From the NCBI GenBank assembly GCA_018222825.1, contig JAAEZO010000004.1, positions 1-52,750 on the forward strand: a stretch of 52,750 nt of DNA, in the 5' to 3' direction. The notes below the pieces were generated by a model. That model made no database searches, was not told the origin of the DNA, and was given only the letters and a program-made list of their open reading frames with translations. Both the position numbers and the translations under genes were made by a program. The stretch comes from Gammaproteobacteria bacterium (GTDB lineage: Bacteria > Pseudomonadota > Gammaproteobacteria > Enterobacterales > Aeromonadaceae). Below, piece by piece: positions 40,937 through 46,357 of this stretch (position 1 is its first letter; the number at the start of each line of letters is the position of its first letter).

Positions 40937-42313
40937 TTGATCAGCGTTGAGCGTAAAGATGGCTTCGCCCTCAAGGTATCTCGCATTCTGCGGGAGGCGA
41001 CCGAGCATCGGCTGGATATGTATCTCTTTATTCCCGGCGAGCTGGGGCTGAACACCAATGTGGTGCCGGAAGAAGAGTTTTACCACAGCGCCATTCACGT
41101 ACAACGCACCTATTTCAGTGACCAGCCGCTGCTGCCGCTGGTGCACAGCCGCCTGGCCCGCCGGGGCAAGCTCACCACCGAGCAGTACCGGCTCAGCCTC
41201 AGTCTCTATGCCTATCAGTACGCGGTGGGGCTGGAACAATCCAGTCACAAGCTGCGTAACGAAAAAGACGGCGCCAGCCAGGAGGCGATAGAAGAGGTGA
41301 TCGCCCTGGCGCAGGATATTCTGCGCCGCCTGCGCCGCAATGTGCCCACCGATCAGACCCTGCTCAAGTACTACTCCAATATCGACAACTATCTGTCCTG
41401 GTTTACCGAGCAGCGGCTGTTGTCGCTGGTGGCTCATCTGCCTCGCAGCGGCGACTACAAGACCACCAAGTCACTGCTGCTGGAAGTGTGTGATATCGAG
41501 CGCCAGCATCGAGAACAACAGCAATATAATTCCAGCCACACTACGGAGGCACTGTCGCGCATTTCCAACAAGATGCGGCTGCTGCGCCGATTGATCGAAT
41601 ATCCGGTGACCCTGAAGGAGAAAACCCGGGAGCTGGGCGGCGGCGAGCAGAAGCTGCTCAAGGCCGGGGTCACCGCCGTGGTGATGACCTCGGTGTCGCT
41701 GGCCGCCTACGAGGTGCGCGAAACCCTGGGCGGTATATCGCTGATGGTGATTTTCGCCCTGGCGCTGCTTTATGCCCTGCGTGAACTGTTCAAGGACGAC
41801 TTACGCAACACCCTGTGGCGCTGGCTGCGCAAGGGGCGCCCCAAATGGCGACGACAGTATTTTGATGTGCACAGCACCCAGCTGGTGGGTCGCCAGCTCG
41901 AATGGTTCGACTACCAGCGCACCTCGCGCCTGGATGACGATATTCTGGCTGCCCGGCATGCCAACGTCAGCCAGCGGGAAGAGGTGGTCATGCACTACGG
42001 CAGCCACTCCCGCATGCTGCCTACCCGCTTTCTGAGTGGCTACGAGCAGACCCGGGAACTGCTGCAGCTGGATCTGAGTCTGCTGTCCAAGCTGATGGAA
42101 AAGGGCTCGCATCACGTCTATCAGCTCAAAGACGGCCAGGTCTCCCGCCAGTCGGTGGAAAAACGCTACCTGATCAACCTGGTCACCCGCGAGATCCAGG
42201 GCCAGAAGCCGCCGGTAATCCAGCGCTGGAAGGTGGTGATGAGCCGCTCCAAAATCGTGGAAATAGAAGAAATTCCGCAAAAGAAAAAGCCCGCCGCCGA
42301 TAGCGCCGCCTAA
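40937..42313 (+). CDS. Uncharacterised two-helix membrane protein, TTG start
   Basis: I do not recognise this 458-residue protein. It has a 238-residue N-terminal domain rich in charged helices (DMYLFIPGELGLNTNVVPEEEFYHSAIHVQRTYF early on; QDILRRLRRNVPTDQTLLKYYSNIDNYLSWF later). A membrane hairpin follows at about 240-258 and 263-281, then a charged 175-residue C-terminal domain ending PQKKKPAADSAA. No signal peptide is present, so both large domains are probably cytoplasmic. The start is inferred to be TTG at 40937 with GGAG 11 bases before it; the first in-frame ATG lies 27 codons in and would remove conserved-looking sequence. It precedes the bufferin genes by 112 bases but a separate promoter is likely. 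Confidence 0.75.
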   Translation: MISVERKDGFALKVSRILREATEHRLDMYLFIPGELGLNTNVVPEEEFYHSAIHVQRTYFSDQPLLPLVHSRLARRGKLTTEQYRLSLSLYAYQYAVGLEQSSHKLRNEKDGASQEAIEEVIALAQDILRRLRRNVPTDQTLLKYYSNIDNYLSWFTEQRLLSLVAHLPRSGDYKTTKSLLLEVCDIERQHREQQQYNSSHTTEALSRISNKMRLLRRLIEYPVTLKEKTRELGGGEQKLLKAGVTAVVMTSVSLAAYEVRETLGGISLMVIFALALLYALRELFKDDLRNTLWRWLRKGRPKWRRQYFDVHSTQLVGRQLEWFDYQRTSRLDDDILAARHANVSQREEVVMHYGSHSRMLPTRFLSGYEQTRELLQLDLSLLSKLMEKGSHHVYQLKDGQVSRQSVEKRYLINLVTREIQGQKPPVIQRWKVVMSRSKIVEIEEIPQKKKPAADSAA

Positions 42314-42330
42314 ATAAAGTTAACTCTGCT

Positions 42331-42355
42331 GTAACAATCGCTCTGCTCTTGCGAC
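42331..42355 (+). promoter_or_regulatory. Candidate ECF-sigma-type promoter of the bufferin operon
   Basis: GTAACA, 15 bases, CGAC, lying 70-95 bases before bufA. The AAC -35 core and CGA -10 core resemble ECF-sigma promoters, and Caulobacter bufferin operons are controlled by an ECF factor (SigF) with a GTAAC/CGAA promoter. No sigma gene is in the window, so this is tentative. Confidence 0.35.
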
Positions 42356-42425
42356 TAACCTGAACGATGACGGCAATAGCGCCGCATCCCGTGTTTACTC
42401 ATCGTCAGCAAGAAGGAAGTTCAAC

Positions 42426-42731
42426 ATGAACAAAGCAACCACCGCTACTGCCATCGCCTTTGCCCTGGGTACCGCCCTCACCGCCGCCAGCGGGCCGGTG
42501 CTGGCGCAGGACTCCATCGCCGACGCCACCGAAAAATGTTACGGCGTGGCACTGAAAGGCAAGAACGACTGCGCCGCCGGCCCGGGTACCACCTGCGCCG
42601 GCACCGCCAAGGTGGATTATCAGGGTAACGCCTGGAAGCTGGTGCCCGCCGGTACCTGCCTGAAAACAGCCTCCCCGACATCACCGACCGGCTTTGGTCA
42701 GCTGGATGCCTTCGAGGAAAAGAAGTCCTGA
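42426..42731 (+). CDS. bufA1: Bufferin precursor peptide BufA1 (DUF2282)
   Basis: The 101-residue protein has a signal peptide ([27 protein letters not shown], cut near residue 27) followed by a short mature region with exactly four cysteines, C38, C49, C57 and C78, in [25 protein letters not shown] and GTCLKT. This spacing is that of DUF2282 bufferin-1 precursors. In characterised bufferins the two middle cysteines are turned into thiooxazole-type rings by the MNIO enzyme BufB, and the exported peptide binds copper. GAAGGAAG lies before the ATG. It is followed 24 bases later by bufB. The family assignment is firm; the modification is inferred. Confidence 0.9.
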
Positions 42732-42755
42732 ACCTCGGTAGCCATGGGAGGCCCG

Positions 42756-43649
42756 ATGCCTGAGTTATCGCACGACATAGTGGTGGCGCCTACCAGCCTG
42801 GCCACGTTACCGGCCGGCGCCGGGCTGGGGCTCAAGCCCCAGCACTTTGACGCCTTGCTCGAACAGCGGCCCTCCTTGAGCTTTGTTGAAATTCATGCCG
42901 AAAACTACATGGTTCCGGGCGGTCCCCTTCATCATTATCTGGAGCGCATCCGGGCCCGGTACCCCCTTTCCATTCACGGCGTCGGCCTGTCTATCGGCGG
43001 GGATAACGATCTCGACAGCGTCCATCTGAACCGACTGGCTCAACTGGTTGACCGCTACCAACCCGAGGCGGTTTCCGAGCATCTGGCCTGGTCCAGTCAG
43101 GGCGGACGCTTTGCCAACGACCTGCTGCCGCTTGCCTATACACCGGCCAGCTTGCAACGAGTCTGCGATCATATCGATCGAGTACAGAATGTCCTGGGGC
43201 GCACCATACTGCTGGAAAACCCCGCCACCTATCTGCGCTTTGCCGATTCCAGCCTGCAGGAAGCCGACTTTATTCACCGTCTGGTGCAACGCAGCGGCTG
43301 CGGCCTGCTGCTGGACGTCAACAACGTTTATGTTTCGGCGGTCAATCACGGCTACGATGCATGGAGCTACCTGACGGCATTGCCACTGACGCGGGTGGCA
43401 GAATTGCATCTGGCCGGCTTTGACGAACAACAGGATAACAGTGGTGCCCGCCTGCTGATCGACAGCCACGGCGCCGACATTGCCGAGCCGGTATGGGAGC
43501 TATACCGCCGGGTGCTCACTCGCCTCGGGCCCACTCCGACCCTGATCGAGCGGGATAACAACCTTCCTTCCTTCGAGGCTCTGCTGGCAGAAGCCGGCCG
43601 GGCTGCACAATGCCTGCAGCAGGCCGCAGCACGGAGCCCGACCTCATGA
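42756..43649 (+). CDS. bufB: Multinuclear non-heme iron oxygenase BufB (DUF692)
   Basis: The 297-residue TIM-barrel protein is a DUF692/MNIO enzyme, the group that oxidises cysteines in ribosomal peptides using two or three iron ions. The expected metal ligands are present in order: HAEN at 47-50, H74 in SIHGVGLS, EH at 108-109, E154 in LLENP, D187 and N189 in LLLDVNN, H198, H218 in ELHLAG, and D236/H238 in LIDSHG. GGGAGG sits 4 bases before the ATG at 42756, preferred over the ATG at 42744. It overlaps bufC by 4 bases. Confidence 0.92.
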   Translation: MPELSHDIVVAPTSLATLPAGAGLGLKPQHFDALLEQRPSLSFVEIHAENYMVPGGPLHHYLERIRARYPLSIHGVGLSIGGDNDLDSVHLNRLAQLVDRYQPEAVSEHLAWSSQGGRFANDLLPLAYTPASLQRVCDHIDRVQNVLGRTILLENPATYLRFADSSLQEADFIHRLVQRSGCGLLLDVNNVYVSAVNHGYDAWSYLTALPLTRVAELHLAGFDEQQDNSGARLLIDSHGADIAEPVWELYRRVLTRLGPTPTLIERDNNLPSFEALLAEAGRAAQCLQQAAARSPTS

Positions 43650-44410
43650 ACATGCAGCAAACCTTTATCGATGCCCTGTTCGATCCCGAGCAGGCACTGC
43701 CCGACCGCCTCGCCTCCCACGATGGCAACCAAGCGCGCTTTGCGGTGTATCGCAACAATGTGCGCGCGTCGCTGACCCAAGCACTGGCCGACACCTTTCC
43801 GGTCTGTCTGCAACTGGTGGGAGAAGACTTCTTTCGGGCCATGGCGGGGGTCTATATCGGGCAGGCAGCGCCCACTTCTCCGCTGTTGACCGACTATGGT
43901 CATTCACTGCCCGCCTTCATCGACGCCTTTCCGCCCGCCGCCGCCGTGCCCTACCTGGCCGACATGGCACGACTGGAACTGGCCTGGCTCGCCGCCCTGC
44001 ATGCCGCCGATCCGAGCCGGCTCGACACCGGGGCCCTGGCTGCTCTGCTGGCCGATCCCCAGCAGGTGGCCGGATTGCGGCTGCAACTGCAGCCCTCGGC
44101 ACGGCAACTAAGCTCTCCCCATGCCGTGGTGTCGCTGTGGCGGGCCCATCAGGGACAGCTCGATATCGCAGAGGTCGATCCCTCACGTGCCGAGCAGGTT
44201 CTGCTGCTGCGCCCGGACCTGCAGGTATTGCTGTTGCCACTCGATGCCGCCGGCGCCGTATTTATCGAGCAGCTATCACAACAGCCTCTGGGGGCGGCGC
44301 TGGAGCACACCCTGAGCCGGCACCCGCATTTTGCACCGGAGCAGACCCTGGCGTTGCTGCTCCGCCATCAGGCCATTGCCCGCTTTTATCCCGCCGGAGA
44401 CAACGCATGA
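43646..44410 (+). CDS. bufC: Bufferin maturation partner BufC (DUF2063)
   Basis: The 254-residue protein begins with a DUF2063 domain: FDPEQALPDRLASHDGNQARFAVYRNNVRASLTQALADTFPVCLQLVGEDFFRAMAGVYIGQAAPTSPLLTDYGHSLPAFI at about residues 11-95, including the typical YRNN motif. DUF2063 proteins act with the MNIO enzyme, probably by presenting the precursor peptide. The second half is divergent. Its ATG overlaps the bufB stop (ATGA), and it in turn overlaps the DoxX gene, so all three are translationally coupled. Confidence 0.9.
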   Translation: MNMQQTFIDALFDPEQALPDRLASHDGNQARFAVYRNNVRASLTQALADTFPVCLQLVGEDFFRAMAGVYIGQAAPTSPLLTDYGHSLPAFIDAFPPAAAVPYLADMARLELAWLAALHAADPSRLDTGALAALLADPQQVAGLRLQLQPSARQLSSPHAVVSLWRAHQGQLDIAEVDPSRAEQVLLLRPDLQVLLLPLDAAGAVFIEQLSQQPLGAALEHTLSRHPHFAPEQTLALLLRHQAIARFYPAGDNA

Positions 44411-44883
44411 ATCCTGCCCGCCTCATTACCCGGCTCAATCTGTGGCTGAGCCGTACACCCTACTCGCCGGTGGCACTGCTGGGCCGCTTCGCCATTGCCG
44501 CCACCTTCTGGACATCGGGCCAGACCAAGATCGACGGCCTGGCTATCAACATCGTCAACGGCGAGTTCAGCCTCGGCTGGCCCAGCCTCAGGCCGCTGGC
44601 CGTCATCCTGTTTCGGGATGAATATCGGTTGCCACTCATTCCACCCGAGCTGGCCGCCACGCTCGCCGCGCTGGCCGAACATGTTTTTCCGTTGCTGCTG
44701 TTGCTCGGCCTGGCCACCCGCCTGTCGGCGCTTGCCCTGCTGATAATGACGCTGGTGATCCAGCTGTGGGTCTACCCCGGCGCCTATGCGATACATGGCG
44801 TCTGGGCCACGGTACTGCTGCTGCTGATGTCGCGCGGCGCCGGCATATGCTCATGCGACCACTGGCTGGCTCGCCGCCACTGA
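44407..44883 (+). CDS. DoxX-family membrane protein of the bufferin operon
   Basis: The 158-residue inner-membrane protein has about four helices and DoxX features: LLGRFAIAATFWTSGQTKIDGL at about 25-46, LAEHVFPLLLLLGLATRLSALALLIMTLVIQLWVYPGAYAIHGVWATVLLLL at 88-139. A cysteine pair in GAGICSCDHWLARRH lies at the C terminus. DoxX proteins are frequent fourth genes of bufferin operons; their role is unknown, with a redox or quinone link suspected. The start overlaps the bufC stop (ATGA). No clear terminator follows. Confidence 0.85.
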   Translation: MNPARLITRLNLWLSRTPYSPVALLGRFAIAATFWTSGQTKIDGLAINIVNGEFSLGWPSLRPLAVILFRDEYRLPLIPPELAATLAALAEHVFPLLLLLGLATRLSALALLIMTLVIQLWVYPGAYAIHGVWATVLLLLMSRGAGICSCDHWLARRH

Positions 44884-44920
44884 CCCCACCGCCATGAATG
44901 AATGATCTCCATCACATTTT

Positions 44921-44936
44921 TGGCATTCTTCATGCA
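44921..44936 (+). promoter_or_regulatory. Candidate sigma-54 promoter upstream of amtB
   Basis: TGGCATTCTTCATGCA keeps GG and GC at the right spacing and matches most of the -24/-12 consensus. It lies about 215 bases before amtB, which would give a long leader with NtrC-like sites downstream of the start, an unusual order. Confidence 0.35.
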
Positions 44937-44958
44937 TGATATTTACTAGCGTGTGCAG

Positions 44959-44973
44959 GCACCATACCGGTGC
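44959..44973. promoter_or_regulatory. NtrC-like site 1 upstream of amtB
   Basis: GCACC-ATACC-GGTGC is a perfect match to the GCACC-N5-GGTGC core of NtrC operators. Ammonium transporter genes are classic NtrC targets. Confidence 0.6.
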
Positions 44974-44983
44974 CAATATCGCT

Positions 44984-45006
44984 TTTGGCGGCAGTTTGCC
45001 GCCAAA
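44984..45006. other. Strong hairpin in the amtB leader
   Basis: TTTGGCGGCA, loop GTT, TGCCGCCAAA: a perfect 10-bp stem. It has no T run and lies between the two NtrC-like sites. It could be a terminator remnant of the bufferin operon or a leader structure. Confidence 0.5.
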
Positions 45007-45091
45007 GGGACCAGATGATGGATGCAGTCGGGCCCGACTGCCTTCTGGACAACCCTCACTGCGCACCAATATGGCCAGCAAGCATCGGCTT

Positions 45092-45108
45092 TGCACAACA
45101 ATGGTGCA
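45092..45108. promoter_or_regulatory. NtrC-like site 2 upstream of amtB
   Basis: TGCACA-ACAAT-GGTGCA differs at one position from TGCACC-N5-GGTGCA. It lies about 40 bases before the amtB start codon. Confidence 0.55.
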
Positions 45109-45148
45109 GAGGTCAGCACCACTATAGAGCACGAAGGAGAATACATTC

Positions 45149-46357
45149 ATGGACAGTATCAGCAGCGCCATCGACACCCTGGCCCAAAGCGCCAACACCC
45201 TGTTTATTCTGATGGGGTCTGTGATGGTGTTTGCCATGCACGCCGGCTTCGCCTTTCTGGAAGTGGGTACCGTGCGCCACAAGAACCAGGTCAATGCCCT
45301 GGCCAAGATCATGACCGACTTCGGGTTTTCCGCCGTGGCCTACTTCTTTGTCGGCTACTGGGTTGCCTATGGGGTCACCTTCTTTCAGGACGCCGAAACC
45401 CTGTCTGCGGGCCAGGGCTACGAGCTGGTGAAGTTCTTCTTTCTGATGACCTTTGCCGCCGCCATTCCCGCCATCGTCTCCGGCGGCATCGCCGAGCGGG
45501 CCAAGTTCTGGCCCATTCTGTGCGCCTCATCGCTGTCGGTGGCCTTCGTCTACCCGTTTTTCGAAGGCATCGCCTGGAACGGCAACTTCGGCCTGCAAGC
45601 CTGGCTGGAAAGTACCTTCGGCGCCGCCTTTCATGACTTTGCCGGCTCGGTGGTGGTGCATGCGCTCGGCGGCTGGATCGCCCTGGTGGCGATATTGCTG
45701 CTGGGCGTGCGCCGGGGTCGTTATCGCAACGGCAAGCTGGTGGCCTTTCCGCCCTCCAACATTCCCTTTCTGGCCCTCGGCGCCTGGATATTGTCCATCG
45801 GCTGGTTCGGTTTCAACGTGATGTCGGCCCAGACCCTGGACGGCATTTCCGGCCTGGTGGCACTGAACTCCATGATGGCCATGGTGGGCGGTATTATCGC
45901 CGCGCTGATTTTGGGCAAGAATGACCCGGGCTTCATCCATAACGGCCCGCTGGCTGGTCTGGTGGCGGTGTGTGCCGGCTCGGATCTGATGCACCCCATC
46001 GGCGCACTGGTGGTGGGCATGATCGCCGGCGCCCTGTTCGTGTGGCTGTTTACCCTGCAACAGAACAAGTGGAAGATCGACGATGTGCTCGGTGTCTGGC
46101 CGCTGCACGGTATCTGCGGTGCCTGGGGTGGCATTGCCGCCGGCATCTTTGGCCAGCAGGCACTGGGCGGACTCGGTGGCGTCAGTATTTTCTCGCAGTT
46201 GCTGGGCACCGCCGCCGGTATTCTGGTGGCCCTGCTGGGCGGCCTGCTGGTGTACGGCAGCATCAAGCTGCTGGTGGGCATTCGTCTGAGCGAGGAGCAG
46301 GAATTCAACGGCGCCGATCTCAGCATCCACAAGATTGCCGCCACCTTCAACGACTGA
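45149..46357 (+). CDS. amtB: Ammonium transporter AmtB
   Basis: The 402-residue protein has about eleven membrane helices and the functional residues of the Amt channel: D163 in HDFAGSVVVH, the twin pore histidines H171 and H320 (LHGICGAWGG), and WFGFNVMSAQ. The N terminus lacks a cleaved signal peptide. AAGGAG lies before the ATG. Unlike in many bacteria no PII gene (glnK) is adjacent. The NtrC-like sites upstream fit nitrogen-limitation control. A hairpin with no T run follows the stop. Confidence 0.93.
   Translation: MDSISSAIDTLAQSANTLFILMGSVMVFAMHAGFAFLEVGTVRHKNQVNALAKIMTDFGFSAVAYFFVGYWVAYGVTFFQDAETLSAGQGYELVKFFFLMTFAAAIPAIVSGGIAERAKFWPILCASSLSVAFVYPFFEGIAWNGNFGLQAWLESTFGAAFHDFAGSVVVHALGGWIALVAILLLGVRRGRYRNGKLVAFPPSNIPFLALGAWILSIGWFGFNVMSAQTLDGISGLVALNSMMAMVGGIIAALILGKNDPGFIHNGPLAGLVAVCAGSDLMHPIGALVVGMIAGALFVWLFTLQQNKWKIDDVLGVWPLHGICGAWGGIAAGIFGQQALGGLGGVSIFSQLLGTAAGILVALLGGLLVYGSIKLLVGIRLSEEQEFNGADLSIHKIAATFND

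What the first reader, a model, noticed from the sequence alone, without database searches (positions are those of the whole stretch)
42426..44883. Complete four-gene bufferin-type copper-peptide operon
A DUF2282 precursor with signal peptide and four cysteines (C38, C49, C57, C78) is followed by a DUF692/MNIO enzyme with all expected metal ligands, a DUF2063 protein and a DoxX protein, the last three overlapping by ATGA. Established knowledge: bufferins are recently described, unusually long ribosomal peptides with modified cysteines that bind copper in the periplasm. The exact core sequence and DoxX role here appear uncharacterised.
Basis: partly seen in the sequence, partly recalled or inferred. 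Interest (0 to 1): 0.85.

Follow-up and report, generated by a model that had tools for sequence, protein, structure and literature searches.

The report
Four-gene bufferin copper-peptide operon
A marine bacterium carries an ordinary set of four genes for making a copper-binding modified peptide, and the DNA in front of it suggests that the set is switched on by a sulfur-redox stress regulator rather than by the regulator known from the model organism.

Summary
Window 42426-44883 (an Oceanisphaera MAG) holds a complete Buf1/GIG bufferin operon: DUF2282 precursor, MNIO maturase (above NCBIfam's BufB cut-off), DUF2063 partner, DoxX. Gene order, four cysteines and metal-site residues are those of the published family: a new member of a known kind. 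One correction: bufB more likely starts at 42756.

New is the regulation. An ECF-type promoter (42330-42357) precedes bufA. Its form stands before 37 of 102 bufA homologues (0 in shuffles); 16 of 102 carry the Caulobacter sigmaF form. The form goes with the sigma type nearby: 15 to 0 against 0 to 9. In 7 of 10 operon-bearing Oceanisphaera genomes a TIGR02943-type sigma with a zinc-type anti-sigma follows bufD; in this genome the pair is on another contig, behind the same promoter form. Haemophilus RpoE2 and Neisseria SigE systems are built alike. I infer thiol or oxidative (perhaps copper-caused) induction. Against: the motif is not enriched genome-wide, and the sigma also occurs in genomes without the operon.

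Cysteine modification, copper binding and induction are unmeasured here. The DoxX role stays open; it has no conserved cysteine.

The parts
42330..42357 (+). ECF-type promoter, TGTAAC-N16-CGACTA, beginning 96 bp upstream of bufA
   Evidence: Same form before 37 of 102 bufA homologues, shuffles 0; no sigma-70-like site on the + strand in 42200-45200
42426..42731 (+). bufA: Buf1/DUF2282 bufferin precursor, 101 aa, Cys 38/49/57/78
   Evidence: PF10048 86.9 bits; the four Cys conserved in 99 of 99 aligned homologues
42426..42506 (+). probable Sec signal peptide (residues 1-27, cleavage after VLA)
   Evidence: Read by eye from the translation; no predictor run
42756..43649 (+). bufB: MNIO bufferin maturase, 297 aa (mechanical ORF starts at 42744)
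   Evidence: NCBIfam MNIO_BufB 385.6 bits, cut-off 310; PF05114 358.4 bits; PDB 3BWW E 6.7e-44
43646..44410 (+). bufC: DUF2063 partner of the MNIO enzyme (PME-type 1), 254 aa
   Evidence: PF09836 87.5 bits; HvfC family 53.6 bits, below its cut-off 142
44407..44883 (+). bufD: DoxX membrane protein, 158 aa
   Evidence: PF07681 59.9 bits; HvfX family 41.9 bits, below its cut-off 80; AlphaFold2 mean pLDDT 94.4

Best explanation
A Buf1-type bufferin (captophorin) operon. BufB, helped by BufC, oxidises the two central cysteines (C49, C57) of BufA to thiooxazoles; Sec exports the peptide, C38 and C78 close as a disulfide, and the product binds copper in the periplasm; BufD is an accessory inner-membrane protein of unknown role. 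Transcription starts at an ECF promoter read by an unlinked TIGR02943-family sigma factor held by a zinc-type HxxxCxxC anti-sigma, so that thiol oxidation or copper attack on the anti-sigma switches the operon on. Shown here: genes, conservation, the promoter and its association with that sigma type. Inferred: chemistry, copper binding, which sigma acts in this genome, and the inducing signal. The confidence is for the bufferin reading; for the regulatory part see the section on the most novel reading.
For: Family profiles. Four Cys in 99 of 99; BufB H74, H109, E154, D187, H218, H238, E265, D267 in 95 of 95, D236 in 94 of 95. Published Buf1 chemistry (PMC12452194). Promoter form 37 of 102 against 0 in shuffles; sigmaF form 16 of 102 against 0.03. 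Form follows the sigma type in the flank: 15 CGAC and 0 sigmaF for TIGR02943-like, 0 and 9 for the weakly matching type, of which three were scanned and have NrsF beside them. L106 lies inside the CGAC-type BufB clade yet has the sigmaF promoter and NrsF. In 7 of 10 operon-bearing Oceanisphaera genomes sigma and anti-sigma follow bufD; those 7 sigma genes lack a motif of their own, 11 of 11 unlinked ones have it (shuffled mean 0.09). Anti-sigma: antisigmaE 56.7 bits, cut-off 50; HxxxCxxC in 39 of 39 found by similarity. H. influenzae RpoE2 and the N. meningitidis SigE regulon include the related DoxX operon (passages).
Against: Nothing was measured in this organism. In this genome the sigma gene is on another contig, so its link to bufA is by analogy. 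The motif is not enriched genome-wide: 6 hits against 5 for the reversed control. The strict motif is missing in 3 of 10 Oceanisphaera operons and in 4 of 19 loci with a TIGR02943-like sigma and a readable bufA upstream. Only 5 of 21 such sigma genes in named loci have a motif of their own, and 3 of these 21 loci gave no anti-sigma hit. The sigma also occurs in 8 of 13 Oceanisphaera genomes without the operon. Related loci are not independent samples.
Confidence: 0.85

Rival explanations
1. Same bufferin operon, but induced by copper through a dedicated copper regulator or a housekeeping promoter; the ECF motif is a minor or relic promoter.
For: Cupriavidus gig responds to periplasmic copper and an RpoQ-dependent start was not shown (passages); the Legionella GIG promoter responds to copper and gold (passages).
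Against: No sigma-70-like site on the + strand in 42200-45200 and no inverted repeat of 8 or more in 42310-42430; the ECF form is conserved across genera.
Confidence: 0.2
2. The product's main task is protection from oxidative or hypochlorite stress, or handling of another metal, with copper binding secondary.
For: RpoE2-dependent induction of the related operon by HOCl (passages); the Caulobacter operon is under sigmaF in dichromate stress (passages); gold induction in Legionella (passages).
Against: Caulobacter Buf1 is reported to chelate Cu(I) and Cu(II) and to improve growth in excess copper (PMC12452194, passage).
Confidence: 0.2
3. BufA is exported unmodified and acts as a plain thiol/disulfide protein; BufBC are inactive here.
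For: Precursor genes without an associated MNIO gene are common in print.
Against: BufB passes the maturase cut-off and keeps the metal-site residues; all four frames are open.
Confidence: 0.04

Closest known systems
Caulobacter vibrioides Buf1 operon CC3254-CC3257 (sigmaF regulon)
   Same: Same four families in the same order; ECF promoter before the precursor gene (PMC3511200, passages)
   Different: Caulobacter uses sigmaF with GTAACC-N16-CGAA; here the -10 is CGACTA, NrsF was not found in the 85%-complete MAG, and a TIGR02943 sigma with a zinc-type anti-sigma is the candidate
GIG operons: Cupriavidus metallidurans gigPABT, and the similar Legionella pneumophila operon
   Same: gigPABT: small four-Cys periplasmic protein, metal enzyme, DUF2063 protein, DoxX-like protein, in that order (passages). 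Legionella: described as similar to it, copper and gold response (passages)
   Different: gigPABT is in divergon with rpoQ and a predicted membrane-bound anti-sigma; here no regulator gene is adjacent
Haemophilus influenzae hvf (oxazolin) operon under RpoE2/HrsE, and the Neisseria SigE regulon
   Same: MNIO, DUF2063 and DoxX-like proteins; small zinc-type (ZAS) anti-sigma (passages); related promoter layout in Neisseria, GTMAGBWTT-N12/13-CGTCTAAH
   Different: Its precursor is an EGKCG-repeat peptide, not DUF2282
   Same: Orthologous operon: BufB 79% identical, BufA 90% identical (G012 copies)
   Different: Species-level divergence only, as far as examined

Membership tests
Buf1 bufferin (DUF2282) operon | DUF2282 precursor with four conserved Cys | tested here: met
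   86.9 bits; Cys 38/49/57/78
Buf1 bufferin (DUF2282) operon | N-terminal Sec signal peptide | tested here: inconclusive
   Typical by eye; no predictor available
Buf1 bufferin (DUF2282) operon | MNIO enzyme gene directly after the precursor gene | tested here: met
   NCBIfam MNIO_BufB 385.6 bits, cut-off 310
Buf1 bufferin (DUF2282) operon | DUF2063 partner in the order ABC, with DoxX in the core | tested here: met
Buf1 bufferin (DUF2282) operon | Two central Cys converted to thiooxazole, outer two in a disulfide | not testable with these tools
   Needs mass spectrometry
Buf1 bufferin (DUF2282) operon | Copper binding and growth benefit in excess copper | not testable with these tools
   Needs experiment
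Buf2 bufferin | Six (or twelve) Cys; NCBIfam BufA2 model | tested here: not met
   Four Cys; BufA2 model 24 bits, cut-off 60
sigmaF/NrsF-controlled operon | GTAACC-N16-CGAA promoter and NrsF anti-sigma | tested here: not met
   Promoter ends CGACTA; no NrsF match in the MAG, 85% complete
RpoE2/SigE-type (ZAS) ECF system, elsewhere in this genome | ECF sigma with a small HxxxCxxC anti-sigma and a matching promoter | tested here: met
   TIGR02943 231.8 bits, cut-off 162.2; antisigmaE 56.7, cut-off 50; HxxxCxxC; motif before the sigma gene
RpoE2/SigE-type (ZAS) ECF system, elsewhere in this genome | It transcribes bufA | not testable with these tools
   Inferred from promoter form and gene linkage in relatives

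The most novel reading that the evidence does not exclude
Buf1 bufferin operons come in two interchangeable regulatory classes. One is the known sigmaF/NrsF class. The other, here, is run by a TIGR02943 sigma with a zinc-thiol anti-sigma, the kind of system that runs the chemically related but differently built oxazolin operons of Haemophilus and Neisseria. Promoter and sigma switch together in evolution (Ramlibacter, L106), so thiooxazole peptides would belong to a thiol-redox envelope response as well as to a copper response.
Probability: 0.65. Interest if true: 0.5.

Novelty: new member of a known kind. Interest (0 to 1): 0.35.

Why it matters
The operon adds one member to a class with more than 20,000 examples by published count (PMC13097082, passage). 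The regulatory result makes a question testable: what signal turns on Buf1 peptides outside the sigmaF group, copper or thiol oxidation? It also gives a promoter form with which to look for the sigma partner of operons that have none beside them.

Tried and rejected
Buf2 was considered and rejected: four Cys, BufA2 model 24 bits under cut-off 60. Recent gain of the operon from beta-proteobacteria was considered, because many of the nearest named homologues outside the genus are beta-proteobacterial. It was not adopted: 9 of 10 operon-bearing Oceanisphaera genomes have the operon in the same slot behind the same gene (not G002), and G015 has that gene about 225 bp from the ammonium-transporter gene with no operon between (the gap holds a CGACTAA, seen by eye). 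That fits repeated loss of an old operon, but neither is proven.

A thiol-oxidoreductase role for BufD was considered: no Cys column is conserved in 91 aligned BufD proteins; R27, K41, Y73, E91, R105, H130, W133 and D151 are each in 91 of 91. The AlphaFold2 model is confident (pLDDT 94.4), but Foldseek gave 0 PDB matches at E 0.001 or less; the best was NACHO/TMEM35A (E 0.4, prob 0.98), and 12 of the 50 rows are vitamin-K-dependent gamma-carboxylase chains (E 1.1-7.7). This is a lead towards a quinone-binding or chaperone role, not evidence. Sequence searches of the PDB gave no hit for BufC (E 0.01), BufA and BufD (E 0.1). A first own-genome motif pattern was too strict to match even the window's own site and gave 0; it was relaxed. 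The original bufferin paper was not among the search listings and was not read; it is known here through PMC12452194.

Full report
What is there. The window is one contig of a 3.19-Mb, 330-contig MAG, 84.76% complete. Its genus is that of Oceanisphaera psychrotolerans: the named hit L058 lies on a contig of 62,686 bases, as does the same-genus genome G012. At 42426-44883 lie four genes on the + strand, DUF2282, MNIO, DUF2063 and DoxX by Pfam. The MNIO passes NCBIfam's bufferin-maturase cut-off (385.6 against 310); the partner and the DoxX protein match the HvfC and HvfX models below their cut-offs. BufA has Cys at 38, 49, 57 and 78. The two ATGA overlaps are present. I place the bufB start at ATG 42756, which has GGAGG just upstream, not at 42744.

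Conservation. 109 loci were given; incomplete genes were dropped, leaving 99 BufA, 95 BufB, 97 BufC and 91 BufD in the alignments, the window's own included. The four Cys of BufA are in 99 of 99. BufB H74, H109, E154, D187, H218, H238, E265 and D267 are in 95 of 95 and D236 in 94 of 95. I read D236 and H238 as the counterparts of the site-3 residues D242 and H244 of HvfB named in PMC13419390 (passages); this pairing was made by eye. BufD has no conserved Cys.

Mechanism of the product. According to PMC12452194 (abstract, sections 4, 13, 14, 18 and passages read) the central Cys of Buf1 are the targets of modification, the outer two form a disulfide, and bufferins use Cys-derived thiooxazoles to sequester copper in the periplasm. 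PMC13097082 (abstract, part 1 of 4 of the results, and passages) finds 5-thiooxazole in related products. I found nothing that speaks against applying this here, but it was not measured.

Promoter. Upstream of bufA is TGTAACAATCGCTCTGCTCTTGCGACTA (42330-42357). The stretches upstream of 102 bufA homologues were examined (start codons chosen by rule, some may be wrong). TGTAA-N17/18-CGAC[TC][AGT] occurs in 37 of 102 (0 in 100 shuffle rounds), the sigmaF form TGTAACC-N15-17-CGAA in 16 of 102 (mean 0.03), a looser ECF form in 62 of 102 (mean 0.66). Of the 10 Oceanisphaera operons 7 have the strict form. Caulobacter sigmaF recognises GTAACC-N16-CGAA (PMC3511200, passages); the Neisseria SigE consensus is GTMAGBWTT-N12/13-CGTCTAAH (PMC2893595, passages). 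The window's GTAACAATC-N12-CGACTAAC has the Neisseria layout, with 7 of 8 matches in the -10 but 6 of 9 in the -35 (counted by eye). Within the window the short form TGTAA-N17/18-CGAC occurs three times, 0.27 expected; the other two sites were not followed up.

Sigma partner. Of 79 named loci (L059-L137), 21 hold a TIGR02943-like sigma in the flank that was held, 10 a weak match, 48 none. Of the 21: 15 CGAC form, 0 sigmaF form, 4 neither, 2 without a readable bufA upstream. Of the 10 weak: 9 sigmaF form, 0 CGAC, 1 neither. Of the 48: 15 CGAC, 7 sigmaF, 25 neither, 1 unreadable. NrsF was confirmed in the three of the nine that were scanned (L106, L118, L124). In the BufB tree of 95 rows L106 is the one sigmaF-type row in a 61-row clade with 37 CGAC and 23 other rows, so promoter and sigma seem to have been exchanged together there. 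Promoter labels cluster on the tree, so these counts are not independent events.

Own genome. A TIGR02943 sigma (231.8 bits, cut-off 162.2) and a small anti-sigma (antisigmaE, 56.7 bits, cut-off 50) lie on contig C259, followed by arsS, with TGTAATAA...CGAC in front. In 7 of 10 operon-bearing Oceanisphaera genomes the pair follows bufD. Sigma genes of 18 Oceanisphaera genomes were examined: 11 of 11 unlinked ones have the motif within 400 bp upstream, 0 of 7 linked ones do; shuffled mean 0.09 of 11, largest 3. HxxxCxxC is in 39 of 39 anti-sigma proteins, which were found by similarity to the window genome's own; 3 of the 21 named loci with such a sigma gave no anti-sigma hit. In the named loci only 5 of 21 sigma genes have a motif of their own. 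All 10 operon-bearing genomes of the genus have the sigma (66% identity or more), and so do 8 of the 13 without the operon. Genome-wide the motif is about as frequent as its reversed control (6 against 5).

Print. H. influenzae RpoE2 with its 67-aa anti-sigma controls the operon with the DoxX-like, COG3220 and DUF2063 proteins, and the Neisseria SigE regulon includes a DoxX cluster (PMC7907618, passages). In Cupriavidus, RpoQ control of gig is assumed but not shown (PMC10304878, passages). PMC12452194 notes sigma factors and NrsF in Buf1 clusters. In the listings of searches and in the passages read I found no statement that a zinc-type anti-sigma system controls DUF2282 operons. Supplementary files were not open to me and most subscription papers are not held, so this is a weak negative.

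Distribution. DUF2282 was found in 26 of 61 genomes searched, the own one included, and in 10 of the 23 of the genus. The slot behind the gene at 40937-42313 is shared by 9 of the 10; G015 shows it empty. Relatives of BufB were found on 354 of 72,556 plasmid records.

BufD. AlphaFold2 (39 sequences) gives a confident model, pLDDT 94.4; no PDB structure matched at E 0.001 or less. Its role stays open.

Verdict. A real, complete, ordinary Buf1 bufferin operon in a host for which I saw none described; the added value is a regulatory hypothesis with comparative support and no experiment.

Noticed in passing
window 40937-42313: A 458-aa protein with no Pfam or NCBIfam match at E 0.01, yet found at 81-100% identity in all 17 Oceanisphaera genomes of that search, own included.
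   Followed up: partly
G023:C1:804975-808430: A bufB homologue in three pieces spread over about 3.4 kb, next to a DUF2282 match at 808500-808652: looks like an interrupted operon.
   Followed up: no
G000:C274:10579-10604 (L149): The same promoter form lies in front of a membrane-protein gene that looks TVP38/TMEM64-like (recalled name, no profile run); possible further target of the sigma factor.
   Followed up: no
L141:1970-2977: arsS (arsenosugar radical SAM, 451.5 bits, cut-off 300) follows the sigma/anti-sigma pair in the window's own genome.
   Followed up: no
L203 (Escherichia coli plasmid NZ_CP024246.1): A plasmid-borne DUF2282, DUF692, 'DNA-binding domain' and DoxX gene set beside a TetR-type regulator gene; the BufB-like protein is 57.7% identical. 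Described from the annotation table only.
   Followed up: no
window 42675-42701 (BufA residues 84-92): A C-terminal tail of the form SPTSPTGxGQL is repeated with small changes in the nearer homologues, and G91 is in 98 of 99; role unknown.
   Followed up: no
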